This document shows positions 5,072-63,911 of a stretch of DNA of 64,000 nucleotides, one piece after another. The position numbers and the translations under genes are program-made. Within the stretch, counting starts at the first letter, position 1. Each line of letters begins with the position of its first letter. The notes below the pieces were generated by a model. The model ran no database searches. It was not told the DNA's origin and was given only the letters and a program-made list of their open reading frames with translations. Source of the DNA: a virus; the IMG/VR virus record IMGVR_UViG_3300019124_000001, positions 1 to 64,000 of that record. One strand, written 5' to 3'.

Positions 5072-5145
5072 TGGCAGGGGCTACAGGACTCGAACCCGTA
5101 CCAACAGTTTTGGAGACTGTCATGCTACCATTACACCAAGCCCCT
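5072..5145 (-). tRNA. tRNA-Trp (CCA)
   Basis: Complete cloverleaf with a 7-bp acceptor stem AGGGGCT/AGCCCCT, anticodon CCA, discriminator G and encoded CCA. Last tRNA of the leftward island. Confidence 0.95.
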
Positions 5146-5148
5146 AGA

Positions 5149-5227
5149 TGGAGGTATGGAGGGGATTTGAACCCCCGAATGCTGGTTTTGCAGACCAGAG
5201 CGTTAAACCGAACTTCGCCACCACACC
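5149..5227 (-). tRNA. tRNA-Cys (GCA), copy 1
   Basis: Acceptor GGTGTGG/CCATACC, anticodon GCA, discriminator U as expected for Cys, encoded CCA. It is 79 nt because of an enlarged D-arm region. A second Cys tRNA lies at 5696-5771. Confidence 0.9.
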
Positions 5228-5256
5228 TATAGCAAATACATGCAAACAAAATATTT

Positions 5257-5332
5257 TGGTGCGCCCACAGGGATTCGAACCCCGACGAACTGATTAAAAG
5301 TCAGCTATGCTAAACCGTTACATCATGAGCGC
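5257..5332 (-). tRNA. tRNA-Lys (TTT)
   Basis: 76-nt cloverleaf, anticodon loop CTTTTAA, discriminator A, encoded CCA. Confidence 0.95.
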
Positions 5333-5336
5333 AAAG

Positions 5337-5414
5337 TGGTACTGGTGGTTGGATTTGAACCAAACGACCTCACGATTATAAGTCATGCGCTCTAACCTTC
5401 TGAGCTACACCAGC
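5337..5414 (-). tRNA. tRNA-Ile (TAT)
   Basis: 78 nt, anticodon loop CTTATAA gives TAT, which reads AUA directly. Most bacteria read AUA with a lysidine-modified CAT tRNA, so the phage supplies a tRNA that avoids this modification. Encoded CCA, discriminator A. Confidence 0.9.
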
Positions 5415-5424
5415 ACAATACGTG

Positions 5425-5511
5425 TGGTGCGAGTGGAGAGACTCGAACTCTCAATCCATTAAAGGCGACAGATTTTAAGTCTGTTGTGTATGCCAATTCC
5501 ACCACACTCGC
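5425..5511 (-). tRNA. tRNA-Leu (TAA)
   Basis: 87-nt class II tRNA with a long variable arm; acceptor GCGAGTG/CACTCGC, anticodon TAA, encoded CCA. Useful comparison for the abnormal tRNA-Leu (TAG) at 7430. Confidence 0.95.
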
Positions 5512-5517
5512 ATAATA

Positions 5518-5593
5518 TGGAGTGCCGTAGAGGATTCGAACCCCTCTGTATCTGCTTAGAAGGCAGATGCCCTATCCACTAGACCAACGGCAC
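5518..5593 (-). tRNA. tRNA-Arg (TCT)
   Basis: Anticodon loop CTTCTAA, stem TCTGC/GCAGA, acceptor GTGCCGT/ACGGCAC, encoded CCA. The discriminator is U, unusual for Arg. Confidence 0.92.
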
Positions 5594-5695
5594 ATAAAAG
5601 AAGCGACAATAGTTAATATCGTTTCAGGATTAGTTTATCGTCTCCCCTGCGGAGAATGTCGATTGTCGCACACGACATTGCCATTTTAGCACTTT

Positions 5696-5771
5696 TGGAG
5701 CGGGGTACTGGATTCGAACCAATGATCTCTCACGTTGCAGGTGAGCGCGTTAGCCACTTCGCCAACCCCGC
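5696..5771 (-). tRNA. tRNA-Cys (GCA), copy 2
   Basis: Anticodon loop CTGCAAC, acceptor GCGGGGT/ACCCCGC, discriminator U, encoded CCA. Sequence differs from copy 1, so it is not a recent duplication. The 100-nt spacer to tRNA-Arg carries a GCGACAAT/ATTGTCGC inverted repeat. Confidence 0.9.
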
Positions 5772-5855
5772 ATAAAACACATCATCGACACAGAAAAAGA
5801 AGAACATATTTCAGCTTCAGGAGGATGGAATAAATGGTTGTGCCGACGATGCTTT

Positions 5856-5930
5856 TGGCGATGGTAAGGGGAATCGAACCCCTGTCTTTCGGGAGACAGC
5901 CGAATATAATAACCATTATACGATACCACC
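5856..5930 (-). tRNA. tRNA-Asp (GTC)
   Basis: Anticodon stem TTCGG/CCGAA with loop CTGTCTC, discriminator G, encoded CCA. Confidence 0.93.
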
Positions 5931-5935
5931 ATTAA

Positions 5936-6011
5936 TGGTGCCGAAGACAGGATTCGAACCTGCAACCTTTCGCTTACAAGGCGATTGCACTAGCCATTGT
6001 GCTACTTCGGC
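5936..6011 (-). tRNA. tRNA-Thr (TGT)
   Basis: 76-nt cloverleaf with anticodon TGT, acceptor GCCGAAG/CTTCGGC, discriminator A, encoded CCA. Confidence 0.94.
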
Positions 6012-6433
6012 AATAAAACAAGTTGCTAACCAAACAGCCACGTGGCAATCAACAAGGTCAATTCGCTACAACCTGCAAGCCAATCACAGCTTCGCGAAAG
6101 CTGTTTACCGTGGATTTTGTCAAGTTTTCAGACTTGAATCATGATTCTTAATTCAAAAGAATGTAAGAGTCGTGAGCTTCTAACCTTATTAACTTTGAAC
6201 TTTTATCTTTACATCCATATTTGTCTACATTCAACATACTATGAATGTGCTTTTAAATAATTTCCGTAGTATCACGATAAAAGTCATATAACAAGGTTGC
6301 CCATTTAACCCAATGGGCTAGGAAGCGAAGTTCGCTGATTTTCGTCTGATTAGCAACAACACTGTTTATTGGTACAGTGAAACCACTTTACCACTCGCTC
6401 TTGAATTCGTGGCGAAACACCATACGAAAACTA
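6012..6433. other. Spacer inside the tRNA island
   Basis: No complete gene. It contains hairpins (CAGCTTCGCGAAAGCTG near 6087; GCCCATTTAACCCAATGGGC near 6299; CACTGT/ACAGTG near 6360). A minus-strand coding-like frame at about 6430-6245 is interrupted by TAA; see findings. Confidence 0.6.
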
Positions 6434-7105
6434 TTACCCATCAATCTCGATAGTAGTTTGCGTATTTGCAACAACAAGAGCGTAATCAACTTCTGCCTTG
6501 AAGTCTTCGATTTCAGTGCGCAATTTATCAATCATGTCGCGAATACCGAGAGGATCGAGCAAAATCGGTTGGCGTTGTGCAGTATATGCATCAACAGACG
6601 CTTGCTGTTCGGCTGAACGGTGCTTAGTGGCTTCTGTTCCAAAAGAGACACGAACAAAATCCTCAACGTTACGATCTAGCTCTTTTTGCAGAGTTTGCAC
6701 TTTCGAAAGAGCTAATGCATAATCAGACTCCAATTTTGCAAGGAGTGCTTCGTCGTAAGCGATAGAAGAATTCTTGCGCTCCAACGCTTCTGCGATTGTC
6801 ATTTCCTTACCGCCGATTGTGATCTTGCGAAGTTCATATCCGTCACCAGCTTTCACGCCAGCATTCGAGATTACAACAGCAGACTTAATCCGCTTGCGAC
6901 GTTCAATCAAATCAAGTACAGATTGAAGTTTCGACCCTGCGCGTTTAGTGAAATCTTCAACAGAAGTTCCAAAGCGCGGTTCAATCTTTTGAGCAGTACC
7001 AGTGTAGTATGCTACATATGTACCGTCATTGATTGCACGATGAATACGAGCATCAAGAGTTTTCAATTCCACAAGAGCTTGCGTGATAGTCATGGTTTGA
7101 GCCAT
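6434..7105 (-). CDS. Coiled-coil protein, possibly DIP1984/DUF6847-like
   Basis: 223 residues. It opens MTITQALVELKTLDARIHRA, continues with heptad-rich helices (residues 95-160 and 190-215) and lacks Cys. The opening pattern recalls small DIP1984-type proteins, but this is from memory and uncertain. It lies between two tRNA groups. Some phages place structural or virion-associated coiled coils in such positions, but no function can be read from sequence. Confidence 0.75.
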   Translation of the reverse strand: MAQTMTITQALVELKTLDARIHRAINDGTYVAYYTGTAQKIEPRFGTSVEDFTKRAGSKLQSVLDLIERRKRIKSAVVISNAGVKAGDGYELRKITIGGKEMTIAEALERKNSSIAYDEALLAKLESDYALALSKVQTLQKELDRNVEDFVRVSFGTEATKHRSAEQQASVDAYTAQRQPILLDPLGIRDMIDKLRTEIEDFKAEVDYALVVANTQTTIEIDG

Positions 7106-7161
7106 TCTGTTGTAGTCTCCTTTTGTCTCTTCAATTTTTATGATTCAATTTGTACGAATTT

Positions 7162-7238
7162 TGGTCAGGGAGACAGGATTCGAACCTGCGACCGCTCGCT
7201 TCCAAAGCGACTACGCTACCAGACTGCGCCACTCCCTG
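7162..7238 (-). tRNA. tRNA-Pro (TGG)
   Basis: Anticodon loop TTTGGAA, acceptor CAGGGAG/CTCCCTG, discriminator A, encoded CCA. Confidence 0.94.
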
Positions 7239-7272
7239 TTATGAGTCACCATTCTCTTGGTGACAACACATT

Positions 7273-7348
7273 TGGCATCCCCTGATGGAATCGAACCACC
7301 ACTTCGAGATTCGTAGTCTCGCGTCTTCGTCCATTCGACTAAGAGGAT
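7273..7348 (-). tRNA. tRNA-Arg (ACG)
   Basis: Anticodon stem CGAGA/TCTCG, loop CTACGAA, so anticodon ACG (probably deaminated to ICG if the host enzyme acts). Discriminator G, encoded CCA. Confidence 0.93.
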
Positions 7349-7350
7349 AT

Positions 7351-7425
7351 TGGTTACGGAGACGGGATTCGAACCCGTGTCTACAGGGTATGAGCCTGTC
7401 AAGGAAACCACTCCTCCACTCCGTA
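7351..7425 (-). tRNA. tRNA-Met (CAT)
   Basis: Anticodon stem ACAGG/CCTGT lacks the three G-C pairs of an initiator, so elongator Met is preferred. A CAT tRNA could also be lysidine-Ile, but this genome already has TAT and GAT Ile tRNAs. Encoded CCA. Confidence 0.88.
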
Positions 7426-7429
7426 ATAT

Positions 7430-7506
7430 TGGTAGGGGCTAGGAGACTCGAACTCCTAAAACTCTGCTTCTAAGGCAGATACGTATGCCAATTCCGTCAA
7501 GCCCCC
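7430..7506 (-). tRNA. tRNA-Leu (TAG) with short variable loop
   Basis: Anticodon TAG (stem TCTGC/GCAGA). The D arm (GGAATTGGCATACG) is Leu-like, but the variable region is only 5 nt (GTTTT) instead of the long arm of class II tRNAs; total 77 nt. Acceptor GGGGGCT/AGCCCCT, encoded CCA. See findings. Confidence 0.85.
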
Positions 7507-7843
7507 ATGTAATACGAACAGTTGGCAAGCTATTGATCAGATAGCCAGTTGCATCCAACTGCAAGGGAGCTTGTTTACTAGTTACTCCGAACCGCATGAT
7601 GTCACGACATCATGAAACGCTATTGATTCTTTTGGACAATCAACAGGAACCCCTCTGGTACTTCATTTTCATATAGGAACACCAGAATCCCATCTTTGTT
7701 TCTAGCTCAAAGACTAAGGCTGTTGTCCTTCTCGTAGTCAACACACGCTACGTTTTTCAACTAGTATTGGAACGTAGAAACCCGCGACCCTTTCATCCTG
7801 AAGCCAAACGCAATGCTTGACTTCTAAACTACTCGTGATCTCG
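7507..7843. other. Spacer inside the tRNA island
   Basis: No intact gene. It holds an 8-bp hairpin CATGATGT/ACATCATG near 7596-7614 and minus-strand coding-like frames broken by stops (see findings). Possibly gene remnants or structured RNA. Confidence 0.55.
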
Positions 7844-7919
7844 TGGTGACGCATGTGGGAATCGAACCCGACATTAACGACTTGAAAGGCCGTTTTCCTA
7901 ACCATTAGAAGAATGCGCC
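7844..7919 (-). tRNA. tRNA-Glu (TTC)
   Basis: Anticodon stem ACGGC/GTCGT, loop CTTTCAA, acceptor GGCGCAT/ATGCGTC, discriminator A, encoded CCA. Confidence 0.92.
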
Positions 7920-7925
7920 AAAATT

Positions 7926-8004
7926 TGGGGTGATGGACGAGAATCGAACTCGCGACACCTGCGGTCACAACGCAGTATGCGTAACCAACACGCATTCCCA
8001 TCAC
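7926..8004 (-). tRNA. tRNA-His (GTG)
   Basis: Anticodon stem CTGCG/CGCAG with loop TTGTGAC; acceptor GTGATGG/CCATCAC and discriminator C. The base before G1 is U, so the extra G(-1) normally encoded in bacterial tRNA-His is absent. Encoded CCA. Confidence 0.88.
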
Positions 8005-8075
8005 AATCCAACCTACCATTTGCACCTAATCGAAGATGGTAGGCTCGATTGCAAAGGCTTGCGTTTTATCTAACC

Positions 8076-8128
8076 CTTACACTTAGTAAGTGACGATGTA
8101 CCCCTGTTTGTCAGGTGTTTTTCGGCAC
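8076..8128 (-). repeat. 53-bp element, copy A
   Basis: Identical 21-bp and 22-bp ends flank a 10-bp variable core. Two more copies lie at 12896 and 12986. This copy is upstream (minus strand) of tRNA-His and the distal tRNA group. The 21-bp end contains the perfect dyad CACTTA-G-TAAGTG. Candidate phage promoter, operator or structured RNA. Confidence 0.85.
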
Positions 8129-8170
8129 GAAGTTTCAAAATGTTTCAAGTGCTCTGTCAACTGAAAGATA

Positions 8171-8258
8171 TGGCGGAACAGGCGAGATTCGAACTCGCGG
8201 TGGTTTTACCCACGCCTTCTTAGCAGGAAGGTGGTTTAAGCCGCTCACCCACTGTTCC
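8171..8258 (-). tRNA. tRNA-Ser (GCT)
   Basis: 88-nt class II tRNA; anticodon stem CCTTC/GAAGG, loop CTGCTAA, long variable arm, discriminator G, encoded CCA. Confidence 0.94.
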
Positions 8259-8338
8259 AAAAAGATAGGCAGGACGGCATACCCTGCATCTCTGTTGACT
8301 ATTTCTAGCGCGGCAGGAACCTTTCTGCCCTCTATCCA

Positions 8339-8611
8339 TTACGAAACGAACGCTTCGACAGTGCCGTCTTCATAGGTCACAATTTCAAGAATGCCCTTTA
8401 CCATCAATGCCGCTTTTGTGTGTTCATTTTCTGGCGTTTCTTTCGTAGAAAAGCCAACGCCCTCACTAACAGACATGTGGTTCACGTAGTATGTTCGTCC
8501 CTTCGCCTTTACAATCCAAGGTGGGATACTGCTATCTTCATTGTGCTTCTTGTTGAAATGAAAAACAATTCTTGTTTTTTCAATCTATAGCTTATTTAAA
8601 ACCACTTTCAC
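8339..8611 (-). CDS. Small phage protein with in-frame UAG at codon 9
   Basis: A 90-codon frame starts with GTG 7 nt after AAGGAGG and ends in TAA, but codon 9 (8587-8585) is TAG. The rest reads as a convincing protein: KTRIVFHFNKKH, IPPW, GRTYYVNH, FSTKETPENEHTK. From memory this resembles a small conserved phage family with the same motifs. No other in-frame stop occurs. The gene lies 125 nt downstream of a CTA (amber-reading) tRNA on the same strand, so readthrough is a natural explanation. The alternatives are a pseudogene or a rare downstream start such as the ATT right after the TAG. Confidence 0.6.
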
Positions 8612-8652
8612 TGTAGTTCCTCCTTATTTTCATTACCACTTGTGCCAAACAT

Positions 8653-8731
8653 TTTATATCAAAACTTTGCCCATTCTTCTATCTAACTAATGCGCACTTG
8701 CCGTATTGAATGGGCAAAGTTTTGATATAAA
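8653..8731 (-). other. 24-bp perfect hairpin
   Basis: Arms 8653-8676 and 8708-8731 are perfectly complementary (start TTTATATCAAAACTTTGCC) around a 31-nt loop. It lies between the suppressor tRNA and the UAG-containing gene. No poly-U follows on the minus strand, so an RNase III processing site or regulatory RNA hairpin is more likely than a terminator. Confidence 0.8.
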
Positions 8732-8736
8732 TAAAA

Positions 8737-8812
8737 TGGTGCGTCCAGCGGGACTCGAACCCACACCTTCCGCTTTTAGAGAGCGGCGTTCTTCCAATTG
8801 AATTATGGACGC
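8737..8812 (-). tRNA. Suppressor tRNA (anticodon CTA, reads UAG)
   Basis: Well-formed 76-nt cloverleaf: acceptor GCGTCCA/TGGACGC, anticodon stem CCGCT/AGCGG, loop CTCTAAA giving CTA, T stem GTGGG/CCCGC with TTCGAGT loop, discriminator A and encoded CCA. It has a 5-nt variable loop. The amino acid it carries cannot be decided by eye. It would decode UAG, and the adjacent downstream gene contains an in-frame UAG. TAG also ends many genes in this window, so it cannot be a complete reassignment. Confidence 0.88.
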
Positions 8813-8814
8813 AT

Positions 8815-8889
8815 TGGCAACGGGTAAGGGATTCGAACCCTTGCTATCAGAATCAAAGTCTGAGGTGCTTACCATTACACTAACCCGCA
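8815..8889 (-). tRNA. tRNA-Gln (TTG)
   Basis: Anticodon stem TCAGA/TCTGA with loop CTTTGAT. The 1-72 pair is weak (U-U), typical of Gln tRNAs; discriminator G, encoded CCA. Confidence 0.9.
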
Positions 8890-9001
8890 ATATTGTTCAG
8901 GGGTAGGGAAATTGATCGTCACGAAATTCTTCGTACTCTGCCACAATTTCCGAACAAAGAATATTCTTTGTTCGCTTTGCCTTGCCATCCCCGACAGCTT
9001 T

Positions 9002-9077
9002 TGGCTACGTAGGTGGGACTCGAACCCACGACCCCCGCATTAACAGTGCGGTGCTACACCACTTCAGCTTCTACGCA
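9002..9077 (-). tRNA. tRNA-Asn (GTT), copy 1
   Basis: Anticodon stem CCGCA/TGCGG, loop CTGTTAA, acceptor TGCGTAG/CTACGTA, discriminator G, encoded CCA. The upstream spacer has a 24-nt palindrome (CGAACAAAG ... CTTTGTTCG, 8952-8975). Confidence 0.93.
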
Positions 9078-9082
9078 ATAAT

Positions 9083-9156
9083 TGGTGCTTCCTGATAGAT
9101 TCGAACTATCATACCTCGATTATCATTCGAGAGTCCTACCATTGGACGAAGGAAGC
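9083..9156 (-). tRNA. tRNA-Ile (GAT)
   Basis: Anticodon stem CTCGA/TCGAG with loop ATGATAA; acceptor GCTTCCT/AGGAAGC, discriminator A, encoded CCA. Confidence 0.92.
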
Positions 9157-9208
9157 AAAAAGTGGGCATGTTAAATGCCCCAAGAGAAAACACCAAAGGA
9201 GAGAATTA

Positions 9209-9284
9209 TGGTGGAGAAGACGGGATTCGAACCCGCTACCTTTCGCTTGCAAGGCGAATGCTCTACCTATTGAGCTACATCCCC
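9209..9284 (-). tRNA. tRNA-Ala (TGC)
   Basis: Anticodon stem TTCGC/GCGAA, loop CTTGCAA. The acceptor has the Ala identity pair G3-U70 and one U-U mismatch at 6-67; discriminator A, encoded CCA. Confidence 0.92.
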
Positions 9285-9291
9285 ATTGTAT

Positions 9292-9366
9292 TGGTTGGGT
9301 ATAAGGGAATCGAACCCCTTCCTCCAGCTTGTAAGGCTGGCGTACTCCCGTTATACAGAATACCCA
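9292..9366 (-). tRNA. tRNA-Val (TAC)
   Basis: Anticodon stem CCAGC/GCTGG, loop CTTACAA, acceptor TGGGTAT/ATACCCA, discriminator A, encoded CCA. Confidence 0.93.
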
Positions 9367-9399
9367 ATAGAAGCAGGGAGGGAACCTCCCCGCAAGTGA

Positions 9400-9696
9400 T
9401 TAGTTTTGAATCTTGTCTGTCAAAGCGTCAATATTTTTAAAGATTTGTGCGATTTGTTGAAGAGATGCTTTAACCTGACTTTGTGTGTTGTCGATTTGCT
9501 GTTGCATATTCGTAAATTGCATAGCCGCAGATGGATCTTGTGATTGGATAATAGACGCGAACTGTTGCAACGTTTGTTCCACGAAGTCAAATTGTTTCTG
9601 AACAATTTCTGCGTTTTGCAAAAGAGCAACACCAGCTTTTACTTCTGCGTCGATTTGGTCAGCTACACGTGCAGATTTCATACCAAAATTAAACAT
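9400..9696 (-). CDS. Small coiled-coil protein
   Basis: 98 residues, almost entirely helical with Gln-rich heptads (TLQQFASIIQSQD, MQQQIDNTQSQV). No Cys, no signal peptide. AGGGGA lies 9 nt before the ATG. It sits alone between tRNA groups with short intergenic gaps, so it is probably cotranscribed with them. Function unknown; an oligomerising scaffold or virion protein is possible. Confidence 0.75.
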   Translation of the reverse strand: MFNFGMKSARVADQIDAEVKAGVALLQNAEIVQKQFDFVEQTLQQFASIIQSQDPSAAMQFTNMQQQIDNTQSQVKASLQQIAQIFKNIDALTDKIQN

Positions 9697-9737
9697 TATT
9701 GTTATTCCCCTTTTATTCCTATATGGTTTTGATTATA

Positions 9738-9811
9738 TGGCAGGGTTGCAGGATTCGAACCCACATCTCTTCCTTGAACTAAGAAGCATTTTGCCGTTAA
9801 ACTAAAACCCT
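9738..9811 (-). tRNA. Atypical tRNA with 8-nt anticodon loop
   Basis: tRNA-like molecule with normal D arm, TTCGAAT T loop and encoded CCA. With standard arm spacing the anticodon stem is CTTCT/GGAAG around an 8-nt loop TAGTTCAA, and the acceptor has only 6 bp (AGGGTT/AACCCT) before discriminator G. If U33 is forced before the anticodon, the triplet would be TCA (opal). Isotype undetermined. Confidence 0.7.
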
Positions 9812-9812
9812 G

Positions 9813-9887
9813 TGGTGGCTCCCGTTGGTAACGCTCCAACCTCCTTCGCTTTTCAGGCGAATGCTAATCTGTCTCAGCTAGAGAGCC
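9813..9887 (-). tRNA. tRNA-Phe (GAA) with aberrant T loop
   Basis: Anticodon stem TTCGC/GCGAA, loop CTGAAAA, acceptor GGCTCTC/GGGAGCC, encoded CCA. The T loop is AGCGTTA on a perfect GTTGG/CCAAC stem instead of the near-universal TTCRANY. Confidence 0.85.
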
Positions 9888-9890
9888 AAT

Positions 9891-9974
9891 TGGTAGGGAC
9901 AGAGGGACTTGAACCCTCACGCTTAAAGCACTAGTTTTTGAGACTAGCGTGTCTGCCCATTCCACCATGCCCCC
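9891..9974 (-). tRNA. tRNA-Leu (CAA)
   Basis: 84-nt class II tRNA, anticodon stem CTAGT/ACTAG with loop CTCAAAA, long variable arm, encoded CCA. Confidence 0.93.
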
Positions 9975-10074
9975 ATGAATTGCTACGTTATTACTTTTAT
10001 TTCGAAGTTCTAAAGGTAGCCAAACCACTCTTCGGTTCGTTATTTTAGGGCTTAAACGAATCCAAAATTACCGC

Positions 10075-10149
10075 TGGTGTGAACAGAGGGAATCGAACCC
10101 TCGCCGTATGCTTGGCAAGCACAAGTTCTAGCCGTTAAACTATGTCCAC
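10075..10149 (-). tRNA. tRNA-Gly (GCC)
   Basis: Anticodon stem TGTGC/GCATA with loop TTGCCAA, discriminator A, encoded CCA. Confidence 0.92.
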
Positions 10150-10152
10150 AAA

Positions 10153-10230
10153 TGGCTGTCGGGGTTGGACTCGAACCAACATTGCCCTCCGCACAACAAG
10201 CAGAGCGCATTACCATTATGCTACCCAACA
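10153..10230 (-). tRNA. tRNA-Asn (GTT), copy 2
   Basis: Anticodon stem TCTGC/GCGGA with loop TTGTTGT, giving GTT but with G at position 37 rather than A. Acceptor TGTTGGG/CCCGACA, discriminator G, encoded CCA. Less canonical than copy 1. Confidence 0.8.
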
Positions 10231-10388
10231 ATATTTGGATGTCGCTTCAACACAGAGCAATTGTGTGTCAGGGCGCGACATTAGCCCTAGCATATTGCAG
10301 TTGTCTAGAATGCCAGCTATGCCGTGCTGTCGCTTCAACTCAGGCAGTCCATCAAGTGGGCTGTTCGTCCGTATTGTTGAGCATTTTG

Positions 10389-10464
10389 TGGTGCGGAATA
10401 AGGGAATCGAACCCTTGCTTCATGCTTGGAAGGCACACGTCATAGACCATTAGACTAATTCCGC
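10389..10464 (-). tRNA. tRNA-Gly (TCC)
   Basis: Anticodon stem TGTGC/GCATG with loop CTTCCAA, acceptor GCGGAAT/ATTCCGC, encoded CCA. Confidence 0.93.
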
Positions 10465-10467
10465 AAG

Positions 10468-10557
10468 TGGCGGGTAGTGAGGGATTCGAACCCCCATGCC
10501 TGTTACAGCACATTGGTTTTCAAGACCACGCCGTTATAACCATTTCGGTAACTACCC
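10468..10557 (-). tRNA. tRNA-Ser (TGA)
   Basis: 90-nt class II tRNA, loop CTTGAAA giving TGA, acceptor GGGTAGT/ACTACCC, discriminator G, encoded CCA. Confidence 0.92.
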
Positions 10558-10561
10558 ATAT

Positions 10562-10648
10562 TGGTGAAGAGGGAAGGAATCGAACCTCCAAGGCACAAAG
10601 GCACGTGGGTTACAGCCACGCCCGCTTCCACTTACGGTCTACCTCTCC
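10562..10648 (-). tRNA. tRNA-Tyr (GTA)
   Basis: 87-nt class II tRNA, anticodon stem CGTGG/CCACG, loop CTGTAAC, acceptor GGAGAGG/CCTCTTC, discriminator A, encoded CCA. First tRNA of the leftward island. Confidence 0.94.
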
Positions 10649-16496: not shown

Positions 16497-16619
16497 AAAT
16501 CGAAAAAGGGTAACTATTTGCTACTAACAGAAAAAATGTTTATATTATATAGTTTTATATATAATATATTATAACTATATATATTCTATTATTGGCAAAG
16601 AGTTACCCTTTTTCGATTT
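16497..16619. repeat. Long inverted-repeat element 1
   Basis: Arms 16497-16520 and 16596-16619 match at 23 of 24 positions around an AT-only centre. Each arm carries the dyad AAAGNGTNACNCTTT (one arm with a change). An inverted copy of the whole element lies at 63800-63911. See findings. Confidence 0.85.
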
Positions 16620-22987: not shown

Positions 22988-23068
22988 ATGTCGGTCGATT
23001 TGGGTTCGCGGTCGCGGGAAGGGTGTGCTAGGGGGATTTGTCAGAAAATTCTGACATTTAAAGGTTAA
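22988..23068 (+). CDS. Possible 26-residue peptide
   Basis: ATG preceded by TGGAGGTAGAGATTG; basic, Cys-containing product. It overlaps a TGTCAGAA/TTCTGACA dyad. Weak evidence: only the RBS supports it. Confidence 0.3.
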   Translation: MSVDLGSRSREGCARGICQKILTFKG

Positions 23069-23113
23069 AACCACCCCCCTACCCCTGCCCTAATATCCCT
23101 AGTTATTAGGCGG

Positions 23114-23377
23114 CTGTCAACCTAGCACAGATCAATGTGTTTGTCAAGAGGAATGTGTGTTCTATCTGATCATTGATAGTCATTATCAATTGACCTACCA
23201 ACACGACACTAAACACTTGACATATGAGCCATTGTGTGATAGTGATATCGGTACTAGTAACACAGATCGCAGGGCTTGACACCCCACACCAGCCTATCAG
23301 CCCATCACTCTCATCAATCATCACCTACCACAACCGTAGCCACTTGTCAACCTATCTACAAATCAGCTACTTGTCAA
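23114..23377. repeat. Cluster of TTGTCAA/TTGACA words
   Basis: Seven related words in 260 bp on both strands (23115, 23141, 23189, 23216, 23275, 23343, 23370), several as CTTGTCAA or CTTGACA, without matching -10 boxes. Resembles an iteron array next to the G-poor tract. Confidence 0.55.
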
Positions 23378-23400
23378 GCACCATAATCCCTACTGCTATT

Positions 23401-24000
23401 TCCTTATTTAAACATATCGCTCCCAAATGTAAACATCTATTCATCAACATTGTTATCGAACATTCCTTAATATATCTTATATATCTCTACCCTATCTATT
23501 TGTGTCTACTACAATAAGTAATAATATTATATTAATTATCTCCTTATCTATCACCATTCACAATTATTATATCTTACTTTAATAGAACATATACGCATAC
23601 ATTAATACATACTACATAATAGCATACTTACTTATATTACTAATATTCATGCTATCTATCATCATATTATATTTACATATACTAATATATTCACAAATAC
23701 TATTAACTTATATCTATTCATACACACTATCACCTACTATTATATATGTGATTAATAAATATAATTGCATAAGTCCATTTACTTATTATAGTACACCTTA
23801 TAGCATTAAACAGTAATATGCACTTATATTTATTAATATAGCATACCATTCTTTGCTTATTATATAATTAATGATTTGCTACCCATACAATTATCATATA
23901 ATCATCCATTAGTAAATACTTACTAATATTATAATACAACATACAAATAAACACTAACTCACACTTACTAATTAATAATAGTCAGAAAATTACGTGTATT
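23401..24000. other. AT-rich, strongly G-depleted tract
   Basis: No genes. In 23521-23760 I count 6 G in 240 bases on the plus strand while C is frequent. Candidate origin, unwinding element or segregation site; see findings. Confidence 0.8.
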
Positions 24001-24310
24001 CAACAACATGTTGAAAATGAGAGCTATCAGACCTTCTAAAAGCCCTCTATTTGCCCTTATACGCTGTTTTACCCCCTTTCTGGTACAACCTATTTCAGAT
24101 CGAAAGAAACAGCCCTTAGAAACGAATTTTAAACTTTATGCAGAATCCTATGCAACTATTCAACCGATTATTTCCCAAAATAGAGCACTTGACAGAATAT
24201 CAAAGACTTGTTCCGCCTTATATATCAAGGCTTCCCGGAATTGTTTGTGGGAAATAAACAATTCTGCGCATTGCATATTCTGCATACGTATTCATAGCTA
24301 TTAAACTTAA
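24000..24310. repeat. Non-coding module, copy 1
   Basis: Begins TTCAACAACATGTTGAAAA, then CTTCTAAAAGCCCTCTATTTG, GTTTTACCCC, CCCTTAGAA and later TGCGCATTGCATATTCTGCA. Related sequence at 24440-24600 and 38360-38640. No reading frame is shared, so the conservation is non-coding. Confidence 0.65.
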
Positions 24311-24439
24311 ACGTCGAAAATTGCCTATTGACAACTATCATATGAGTATGTTACCATTAAGAGTTAGACTTTGATTGCCAATCATTAATATTGTTAATTT
24401 CTCACTTACGTTACCATACTAAAGAAACAATTCAGACAA

Positions 24440-24600
24440 TTGCGTGTATTCAACAATGTGTTGAAAAATGATCGTTTTGACGAATGCGACACCTTCTATA
24501 AGCCCTCTATTTGGCTCTGTATTGCGTTTTACCCCTTCTCAGCTATAGCCTATTTGGGAATCAAAAACAAAGCCCTTAGAAGGCAAATGTATAAAAATCC
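24440..24600. repeat. Non-coding module, copy 2
   Basis: Starts GCGTGTATTCAACAATGTG and shares CTTCTATAAGCCCTCTATTTG, GTTTTACCCC and CCCTTAGAAGG with copy 1 in the same order. Confidence 0.65.
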
Positions 24601-24732
24601 ATATTTGACAAACTGATAATTGTGTGAAACCCTTGATATTGCTAGGTTTTCTAGTGCTTGACAAATATCAATATTCATGCATCATCTTCATATATGCATC
24701 ATTAATGCATAAAGATGCAATAGAGGGGCATA

Positions 24733-24762
24733 TTGACAAACGACAACTATGTATGATATAAT
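24733..24762 (+). promoter_or_regulatory. Strong promoter with shared spacer motif
   Basis: TTGACA, 18 bp, TATAAT; spacer AACGACAACTATGTATGA is shared with other promoters. It faces a minus-strand promoter 115 bp away. Confidence 0.75.
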
Positions 24763-24876
24763 TGTCTGTTATGCATTAATCAGAGTTAAACAAACCACGC
24801 GAAGCGATTCATATTCGTTTAATTAGCTATTTTCTCCTTTATTAAGGAAAAATTAAACACTTGAATCATGTGCGCG

Positions 24877-24906
24877 ATTATATCATACAATAATATCGCT
24901 TGTCAA
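24877..24906 (-). promoter_or_regulatory. Convergent leftward promoter
   Basis: TTGACA, 18 bp, TATAAT on the minus strand; ends in the same GTATGATATAAT as the rightward promoter at 24733. Confidence 0.7.
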
Positions 24907-25554: not shown

Positions 25555-25935
25555 ATGATGAACAACCAAGAACAAAACCAAGTTCGCGCAATGTCTCTGA
25601 TCGGGCGCACGATGAACATTCAACCGAAAGATCAAACGAAAATCATCAAAAATGTTCGCCTGATCGACGTAAAAGCCCCAAATGTCGTGTTTCAATACGA
25701 AAGCGGCGACAAACAAGGCGAAACGTTCGAACTAGAAGCAAATTCGTTCCTGTGGGAAGCACTGAACAGCAAAGAGGAAGGAGAAATCTGGCACCACGAA
25801 TCTACCAAGAATCAACTCTTGGAAGCATACGGTGATGAAGTGCCTGACAGAGTAAGGGATTTTGTTGCTGAACACATCGACAAACCACTGAAAGAACTGT
25901 ACGCAATCGTTGAAGCGCGAAGCAAAGAGCAATAA
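25555..25935 (+). CDS. Hypothetical acidic protein
   Basis: 126 residues, beta strands in the first half (KNVRLIDVKAPNVVFQY) and charged helices after residue 85. RBS AGGAGG with the AATTACAT box between it and the ATG. Followed without a new promoter by a 55-residue gene. Function unknown. Confidence 0.8.
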   Translation: MMNNQEQNQVRAMSLIGRTMNIQPKDQTKIIKNVRLIDVKAPNVVFQYESGDKQGETFELEANSFLWEALNSKEEGEIWHHESTKNQLLEAYGDEVPDRVRDFVAEHIDKPLKELYAIVEARSKEQ

Positions 25936-26058
25936 GCCGTCCTAGCGGCTCAAAACAGCCCTTTAAGCTAGGAGCGTCTACCCCGAAAGGGGTAGGGTAG
26001 GGTATATCCCTAAAACATCACAGAAAGCCCGCTAGGGGCTTTAGGAGGTCAATTACAT

Positions 26059-54331: not shown

Positions 54332-54639
54332 TGGAATGGATTCGTGTAAACGCAAGTAAGCTATTTGTTGAGTACGATGGTTATCCCTCATGGGATCTTT
54401 TGAGTCTTGATACTCAAAAAGGCGAAGCTGTTATTCGACGAATGGACGATGTGCTAACGGTTTCAATTGCTGACACGAAATTTAGTTTAGCAATAAATGC
54501 TGATCATCTGGAAACACCAAAAATGCACGGATGTCCGTTGTGCGGTCAAATCATCACAAAACAATGGCGCGAACACTACCTGATCCCACGTGAAGAAAAA
54601 CGTATGTCAAAGCACCAAGAGGAGTCTAATAAATGTTAG
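54331..54639 (+). CDS. Hypothetical protein with CPLC motif
   Basis: 102 residues, beta-rich with CPLCGQIITKQWREHY late, a possible half zinc site. Coupled start. Ends with TAG that overlaps the next gene. Function unknown. Confidence 0.75.
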   Translation: MEWIRVNASKLFVEYDGYPSWDLLSLDTQKGEAVIRRMDDVLTVSIADTKFSLAINADHLETPKMHGCPLCGQIITKQWREHYLIPREEKRMSKHQEESNKC

Positions 54640-54896
54640 GTAGACTCATTCGTCCTGCTGGATTATCTGAGCTTGAATGGAAGGTGCGTCAGGCAAGACA
54701 AAGGTACGCTGGAAAGACGATAGCCGTAATCACTAAAGCTGATGGTCTTTCACAGTTAAAATTCATTGCCAAGTTGAAGGTAAATGAAATTGAAGCAGAT
54801 CAACACCTTAAAGAAGTATTGGTTCGCGTGTCACCCGTGGTTGGCATTGGTGAACAGGCGATCAAGCTATCTGACTTCGAACGAATGATGCTATAA
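54633..54896 (+). CDS. Hypothetical basic protein
   Basis: 87 residues (LSELEWKVRQARQRYAGKTI, VSPVVGIGEQAIKLSDFE). AAGAGGAG upstream; overlaps the previous stop. Ends directly at a strong bidirectional terminator. Confidence 0.78.
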   Translation: MLGRLIRPAGLSELEWKVRQARQRYAGKTIAVITKADGLSQLKFIAKLKVNEIEADQHLKEVLVRVSPVVGIGEQAIKLSDFERMML

Positions 54897-54937
54897 ACTA
54901 AAGCCCTAGCAAATATTTGCTAGGGCTTTAGTTTATA
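54894..54937. terminator. Bidirectional terminator
   Basis: TAAACTAAAGCCCTAGCAAA and its complement make a 20-bp stem, with T-rich tails for both strands. It can end the rightward operon and the leftward RNA from 55.2 kb. Confidence 0.88.
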
Positions 54938-54956
54938 GTGTGTATTTAAATAAGAC

Positions 54957-55222
54957 AAATAGCAAACATCCCAACTTTAGAGATGTTTGCTATTTGTCAA
55001 ATAATTATGAACTTGACAGAGAGCCTATCTATTTAGTTCGATACCTCTCCACAGAAGCCCCCGCGCTCTGTTCCGTACTGGTCGCTGTCCAAGCGGCTCT
55101 CTGTCAAAGAGTAGGTGAGAAGTGGATAAAGCAAAGGGACACAACCCACCCGCTCAGTATCAGGTCGCACAGGGGAATACTGTCTGCTTTTTTATCGCAA
55201 CAGCATTGTACGTCCCTGACAA
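54957..55222 (-). ncRNA. Candidate structured leftward RNA
   Basis: About 260 nt from a strong minus-strand promoter. Two domains: AGGGAC/GTCCCT closing the 5' part, and TTGACAGAGAGCC/GGCTCTCTGTCAA (13 bp) closing the 3' part (55013-55111). It ends at a CAAATAGCAAACATC/GATGTTTGCTATTTG hairpin. GC content is higher than the surroundings. No credible reading frame with an RBS. The family is not recognised. Confidence 0.7.
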
Positions 55223-55227
55223 CTATT

Positions 55228-55256
55228 ATAATACTATAAAAATTAATGTATGTCAA
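55228..55256 (-). promoter_or_regulatory. Promoter of the leftward RNA
   Basis: TTGACA, 17 bp, TATTAT on the minus strand, the only clear leftward promoter between 25 and 63 kb. Confidence 0.78.
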
Positions 55257-55363
55257 TAGGTTTGCCAATGTTTTAATTTTCTGACTATTCAATTGCATGT
55301 TGCTTATTAGTGTGTATTGAGGTATAATGAAAACAAGGCGAACAAAGGGGAGCGAACAATAAA

Positions 55364-55720
55364 ATGAATAGATGGCATTCAATTAAATTCTCATGTGGTC
55401 ATGAAAGCACATTTATAAATCTCGATGTTGTCAACAAGTGGGAACACAGATTTGTAAATGGACAAACGCTTTGCTATAATTGTCGAATCGAAAACAATAG
55501 AATCCAAGTGTTAGAACAAGACATCTATCTAGTTGTCGAACAATACGCAACACAACGCATTCACTTGAGTTGTAGTTTGAAAGACAATGAAGAAATTAGA
55601 AAGAAAGGGGATTTCGCTTACTATCTCAATCATGATAAAGGTACGAGCATAGTCCCTTATCATTGGTTAGTAAATGAAGCATTAAGATTTAAGAAATTAT
55701 TACATAGGAGGAATGATTAA
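55364..55720 (+). CDS. Putative zinc-binding protein
   Basis: 118 residues. FSCGHESTF and LCYNCRIEN near residues 10-45 give a C-H ... C-x2-C zinc pattern; the remainder is helical. GGGGAGCGAACAATAAA precedes the ATG. A 31-codon gene follows. Confidence 0.75.
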   Translation: MNRWHSIKFSCGHESTFINLDVVNKWEHRFVNGQTLCYNCRIENNRIQVLEQDIYLVVEQYATQRIHLSCSLKDNEEIRKKGDFAYYLNHDKGTSIVPYHWLVNEALRFKKLLHRRND

Positions 55721-63799: not shown

Positions 63800-63911
63800 A
63801 AATCGAAAAAGGGTAACTCTTTGCCAATAATAGAATATATGTTTAAATATATTTATTTAATATATATAACGTATTTTCTATTAGTAGCAAAGAGTTACCC
63901 TTTTTCGATTT
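63800..63911. repeat. Long inverted-repeat element 2
   Basis: Perfect 24-bp arms (63800-63823, 63888-63911) around an AT-rich centre. Its left half plus flank is the reverse complement of the right half of element 1 over about 50 bp, so the two elements are inverted relative to each other. Confidence 0.88.

What the first reader, a model, noticed from the sequence alone, without database searches (positions are those of the whole stretch)
54957..55256. Leftward structured RNA inside the rightward gene array
A strong minus-strand promoter, two base-paired domains (the larger closed by 13 perfect pairs, TTGACAGAGAGCC), relatively high GC and terminators on the left make a self-contained RNA gene of about 260 nt. 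No tRNA, RNase P, tmRNA or intron signature is evident. It may regulate by antisense pairing or bind a host protein, as 6S RNA does.
Basis: partly seen in the sequence, partly recalled or inferred. Interest (0 to 1): 0.7.

Follow-up and report, generated by a model that had tools for sequence, protein, structure and literature searches.

The report
Orphan leftward phage small RNA gene
A large Bacillales-type phage appears to carry, pointing against all its neighbours, a small self-contained RNA gene with no known relatives; it most likely works as an antisense regulator of protein synthesis, but nobody has yet shown that it is made.

Summary
In the 467-nt gap 54897-55363 of a 163.8-kb phage record lies a leftward unit: promoter TTGACA-17-TATTAT (55256-55228), three hairpins (55221-55158, 55155-55110, 55107-55013, the last closed by 13 perfect pairs) and a 19-pair terminator hairpin (54998-54954), giving about 270 nt. 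The fold beats dinucleotide shuffles; for the first two hairpins only on the minus strand (z -4.5 against 0.0). The promoter is of the same type as the window's 30 strong rightward promoters; only one other strong leftward promoter exists. A real RNA gene is likely (about 0.8), although no transcript data exist.

It matches no Rfam family (not 6S, tRNA, tmRNA, RNase P or intron). I found no homologue in IMG/VR scans, INPHARED, PLSDB, sixteen phage records, or about 1,100 bacterial genomes, so the structure has no covariation support.

Two UCCC motifs lie unpaired (0.2% of shuffles), the known seed of Gram-positive sRNAs that block Shine-Dalgarno sequences, such as phage-borne SprD. I therefore favour a trans-acting antisense sRNA, but target prediction within the phage was no better than chance. 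It is an orphan member of a known kind: phage-encoded sRNAs.

The parts
55228..55256 (-). Promoter of the RNA gene: -35 TTGACA 55256-55251, 17-nt spacer, -10 TATTAT 55233-55228; inferred start about 55222-55219
   Evidence: 11/12 match, same TTGACA-17 type as the rightward array promoters; no transcript data
55158..55221 (-). Hairpin 1 (64 nt), with unpaired UCCCC bulge at 55176-55172
   Evidence: -25.4 kcal/mol, z about -5.4 on the minus strand, -0.7 on the plus strand
55110..55155 (-). Hairpin 2, with a 15-nt unpaired loop UCCCUUUGCUUUAUC at 55139-55125
   Evidence: z about -3; loop unpaired with probability near 1
55013..55107 (-). Hairpin 3: 13 perfect pairs (55107-55095 with 55025-55013) closing a 69-nt GC-rich loop domain of uncertain fold
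   Evidence: the stem is far beyond chance; the interior is not (z +0.95)
54944..54998 (-). Leftward intrinsic terminator: 19-pair hairpin 54998-54954 plus T-rich tail
   Evidence: the U-tract is weak
54891..54938 (.). Palindromic terminator shared by the rightward gene 54633-54896 and, as back-up, the leftward RNA
55300..55328 (+). Divergent promoter (TTGCTT-17-TATAAT, 9/12) of the next rightward gene 55364-55720

Best explanation
A stand-alone, leftward phage gene for a small non-coding RNA of about 270 nt: three hairpins and an intrinsic terminator, with its own sigma-A-type promoter, set back-to-back with the rightward gene 55364-55720. Most likely it is a trans-acting antisense sRNA of the Gram-positive UCCC type: unpaired UCCC/CCCUUUG segments in hairpins 1 and 2 would pair with G-rich Shine-Dalgarno regions of host or phage mRNAs and block translation. 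Shown at sequence level: promoter, hairpins, strand bias of the fold, terminators, absence of a known family. Inferred: transcription, 5' and 3' ends, antisense action, targets.
For: Promoter of the phage's own array type, perfect TTGACA and 17-nt spacing, at the 5' edge of the structured core. Full RNA -106.5 against -73.8 kcal/mol for shuffles, z -7.0; hairpins 1+2 z -4.5 on the minus strand and 0.0 on the plus strand. Terminators. No credible ORF on either strand. Both UCCC motifs of the core are unpaired; 2 of 1000 dinucleotide shuffles have two or more. UCCC loops are established seeds of Gram-positive sRNAs acting on Shine-Dalgarno sequences (PMC3861533, PMC4132741).
Against: No homologue and hence no covariation. 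No expression data. The UCCC test was chosen after seeing the sequence. Predicted pairing with 354 start regions of this phage is no better than shuffled controls (28 matches against 26.7 +/- 14.4). About one promoter this good per strand is expected by chance in 64 kb.
Confidence: 0.45

Rival explanations
1. A real leftward RNA, but one that acts by binding a protein or the ribosome (sponge, decoy or scaffold) through the 13-bp stem and its large GC-rich loop, not by antisense pairing.
For: The 13-bp perfect stem holding a 69-nt GC-rich loop is the most conspicuous and least explained part. GGGG in that loop is unpaired and could contact the unpaired UCCCC of hairpin 1. No antisense target stands out.
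Against: No match to 6S or any other protein-binding RNA family. The loop interior folds no better than chance.
Confidence: 0.27
2. No stable functional RNA: the promoter-like site, inverted repeat and terminators are intergenic sequence (DNA-level site, relic of an inserted element, or noise).
For: No conservation anywhere. The 13-bp repeat folds on both strands (z -3.15 and -4.0). About one promoter this good is expected per strand per 64 kb by chance. Strand differences in folding energy as large as here occur in 1.3% of 114-nt windows.
Against: The promoter sits exactly at the 5' edge of a minus-strand-specific fold and opposite two terminators. No target-site duplication at the 13-bp repeat and no second copy in the phage genome.
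Confidence: 0.18
3. A cis-acting antisense RNA or type I antitoxin that controls the neighbouring genes.
For: Related phages of the SPbeta kind carry type I toxin-antitoxin RNAs (PMC5848175, abstract). Loop 2 is complementary over 7 Watson-Crick pairs to the RBS of the adjacent gene (CCCUUUG 55138-55132 with CAAAGGG 55343-55349).
Against: Terminators separate the RNA from gene 54633-54896, so there is no overlap with a coding sequence. No toxin-like ORF with an RBS overlaps it. 28 of 354 start regions match loop 2 as well, the same as for shuffled loops.
Confidence: 0.1

Closest known systems
SprD of a Staphylococcus aureus converting phage, and other UCCC-type Gram-positive sRNAs (Rsa family, RNAIII loops, LhrC, FsrA)
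   Same: Phage-borne (SprD), several hairpins, C-rich unpaired loops, intrinsic terminator; loop pairing with a ribosome binding site is the proposed action (PMC3861533, PMC4132741).
   Different: No sequence similarity detected; no target shown here; the 13-bp-closed 69-nt loop domain is not described for them in the passages read.
Type I antitoxin RNAs of SPbeta (SR4, SR6)
   Same: Small RNA of a phage distantly related to this one, transcribed against its neighbours.
   Different: No overlapping toxin gene here.
6S RNA
   Different: No covariance-model match and a different architecture.

Membership tests
6S RNA | Match to the Rfam covariance model | tested here: not met
   No match at gathering or at E up to 10
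6S RNA | Single long hairpin with a large central bubble that mimics an open promoter | tested here: not met
   Three separate hairpins predicted
UCCC-type Gram-positive trans-acting sRNA | Accessible UCCC/C-rich segments in loops or single strands | tested here: met
   Two unpaired UCCC; 0.2% of shuffles; predicted structure only
UCCC-type Gram-positive trans-acting sRNA | Own promoter and intrinsic terminator | tested here: met
   Consensus matches; not shown by experiment
UCCC-type Gram-positive trans-acting sRNA | Complementarity to ribosome binding sites of target mRNAs | tested here: inconclusive
   Matches exist in the phage but no more than for shuffled loops; the host is unknown
UCCC-type Gram-positive trans-acting sRNA | Detected transcript during infection or lysogeny | not testable with these tools
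   No transcriptome for this uncultivated phage
Type I antitoxin RNA | Overlap with, or complementarity to, a small toxin gene | tested here: not met
   No small ORF with an RBS overlaps on either strand
tRNA, tmRNA, RNase P RNA, group I/II intron, ribozyme | Match to the Rfam or ARAGORN model | tested here: not met
   No match in 55000-55230

The most novel reading that the evidence does not exclude
The first known example of a phage RNA class with its own biochemical role: a 13-bp-closed, GC-rich large-loop domain, perhaps tied by a UCCCC-GGGG contact to the first hairpin, that captures a host protein or the ribosome during takeover; its relatives would simply be unsampled.
Probability: 0.12. 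Interest if true: 0.7.

Novelty: new member of a known kind. Interest (0 to 1): 0.3.

Why it matters
If transcribed, it is one more case of a large phage carrying a dedicated regulatory RNA against the direction of its gene array, and it offers a tractable test of whether phages of Gram-positive hosts use UCCC-seeded sRNAs to reprogram translation. Because it has no relatives, it matters only once expression is shown.

Tried and rejected
(1) Rfam at gathering and at E up to 10: only terminator-hairpin look-alikes (rli61, Spot 42) and a 12-bit plus-strand DUF805b match.

(2) BLASTN, distant mode, in INPHARED and PLSDB: only fragments covering at most 16% of the query, E 0.1 or worse among the rows listed.

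(3) Exact core patterns in IMG/VR and GTDB genomes: three chance 18-mer hits (the R1 model matches only those 21 nt in two of the contigs and nothing in the third); the other patterns gave none.

(4) Single-sequence covariance model R1 against Sundance and the rest of this phage, 12 IMG/VR records, four large Firmicutes phages, and 295 family-level and 398 class-level genomes. The best hit, 25 bits, lies antisense within a 298-aa ORF that looks like a protein gene, and its interior does not align. A one-sequence model is insensitive to distant homologues, and no positive control existed.

(5) Mobile-element reading of the 13-bp repeat: no second copy, no target duplication.

(6) Coding on either strand: the long ORFs lack an RBS, run through the terminator, or run through the promoter. 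A 4-codon ORF (AUG CUG UUG CGA UAA) behind AGGG inside hairpin 1 was noted but is not convincing.

(7) Antisense targets in the phage: nothing beyond shuffled controls except one marginal duplex at 73673, which falls inside a predicted coding ORF.

One sliding z-score scan timed out (its partial output was used).

Full report
What was checked. The window is the first 64 kb of a 163,787-bp IMG/VR virus record. Its DNA polymerase is about 50% identical to that of Brevibacillus phage Sundance (134 kb, with several genes named after SPbeta/SPBc2) and to those on a 141-kb Paenibacillus alvei plasmid and a 141-kb P. agilis contig. It encodes a tubulin-family protein, an integrase and a PhoH-like protein, 29 tRNAs, a skipping-rope RNA and a pistol ribozyme. 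It is therefore a Bacillales-type, possibly plasmid-forming phage (inference) without close relatives in any collection searched.

The locus. Gene 54633-54896 (+) ends at 54896, and gene 55364-55720 (+) starts at 55364 with its own promoter at 55300-55328 (TTGCTT-17-TATAAT). The 467-nt gap holds a palindromic terminator (54891-54938), a leftward terminator (54998-54954), a structured GC-rich core (55010-55221) and a leftward promoter (55256-55228). The unit is self-contained. With a start 6-9 nt after the -10 box and an end in the U-tract, the RNA is about 270 nt.

Is it more than chance? The window has 30 rightward promoters with at least 11/12 consensus and 16-18 nt spacing, against about 1 expected; leftward there are two, against about 1 expected. 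One of the two is this one, with the same perfect TTGACA and 17-nt spacing as most array promoters, and it lies at the 5' edge of the structured core. The 13-bp perfect inverted repeat is expected 0.13 times per 64 kb, 0.017 times at its GC content. The 54954-55221 RNA folds at -106.5 against -73.8 kcal/mol for shuffles (z -7.0). Without the terminator hairpin z is -3.05; hairpin 1 alone -5.4; hairpins 1+2 -4.5. On the plus strand hairpin 1 gives -0.7 and hairpins 1+2 give 0.0. The fold thus belongs to the strand on which the promoter lies. Caution: the raw energy difference between strands is matched by 1.3% of 114-nt windows, and hairpin 3, being perfectly paired at its base, cannot tell the strands apart.

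What it is not. No Rfam family matches the core. No credible ORF exists, so it is not a type I toxin mRNA, and no toxin gene overlaps it.

Relatives. None were found. Protein-level scans of two neighbours in IMG/VR found nothing. A covariance model from this one sequence found only itself in Sundance and this phage, and nothing in 12 IMG/VR records or four other large Firmicutes phages. Among 295 Paenibacillaceae-level and 398 class-level genomes it found only chance hits. DNA searches of order- and genus-level genomes gave at best fragments of about 26 nt. The RNA is an orphan, so the structure has no covariation support, and a single-sequence model can miss distant homologues.

How it may work. 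Both UCCC motifs of the core are unpaired, in the bulge of hairpin 1 and the loop of hairpin 2 (unpaired probability near 1 for the C runs). Only 2 of 1000 dinucleotide shuffles have two unpaired UCCC; the motif was chosen after seeing the sequence. Accessible UCCC is a recurrent seed of Gram-positive sRNAs that block Shine-Dalgarno sequences (PMC3861533, PMC4132741), and SprD is a phage-borne example acting by hairpin-loop pairing (PMC3861533). Loop 2 is complementary over 7 Watson-Crick pairs to the RBS of the adjacent gene at 55343-55349, but 28 of 354 start regions in this phage have such matches and shuffled loops give the same number, so this identifies no target. The mechanism is therefore an inference from motif and anatomy. 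A protein-binding role through the 13-bp-closed loop domain remains the main rival.

Verdict. A genuine leftward sRNA gene is likely (about 0.8) and its antisense mechanism plausible (0.45 for the whole statement). As a kind of thing it is ordinary: phages are known to encode sRNAs (review PMC12197685). As a sequence it is new and unrelated to anything held here.

Noticed in passing
window 25066-56693 (+): The motif AATTACATA occurs 35 times on the plus strand and never on the minus strand, between array promoters and the ribosome binding site: a shared 5' leader element of the rightward early genes. The leftward RNA lacks it.
   Followed up: partly
window 23999, 24449, 26262, 27340, 30481, 31014, 38367, 38709, 39378, 55966, 56636, 57823: Operator-like palindrome TTCAACAnnnTGTTGA, in several cases overlapping the -35 box of an array promoter; possibly a repressor site.
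   Followed up: partly
window 47296, 48452, 50468, 50959, 52504: Terminator-promoter fusions: the 3' arm of a hairpin just upstream forms the -35 and spacer of the next promoter, and the T-run leads into the -10 box.
   Followed up: no
window 24733-24906: Two strong promoters face each other (24733 + and 24906 -) and share TGTATGATATAAT; the transcripts would overlap. Possible antisense control region.
   Followed up: no
window 23000-24900: A 1.9-kb stretch without convincing genes, poor in G on the plus strand, with two related elements of about 140 nt (near 24000-24130 and 24445-24590) whose minus strand folds better; possibly an origin or RNA elements.
   Followed up: partly
window 16497-16619 and 63800-63911: The same inverted repeat (AAATCGAAAAAGGGTAACT, 19-25 bp arms) occurs at two distant places.
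   Followed up: no
window 5072-10648 (-): 29 tRNA genes including predicted CTA (called Pyl) and TCA (called SeC) anticodons, which may be amber and opal suppressors, with a skipping-rope RNA at 8261-8339.
   Followed up: no
window 25935-26002 (+): Pistol self-cleaving ribozyme between two rightward early genes (Rfam RF02679, 60 bits).
   Followed up: no
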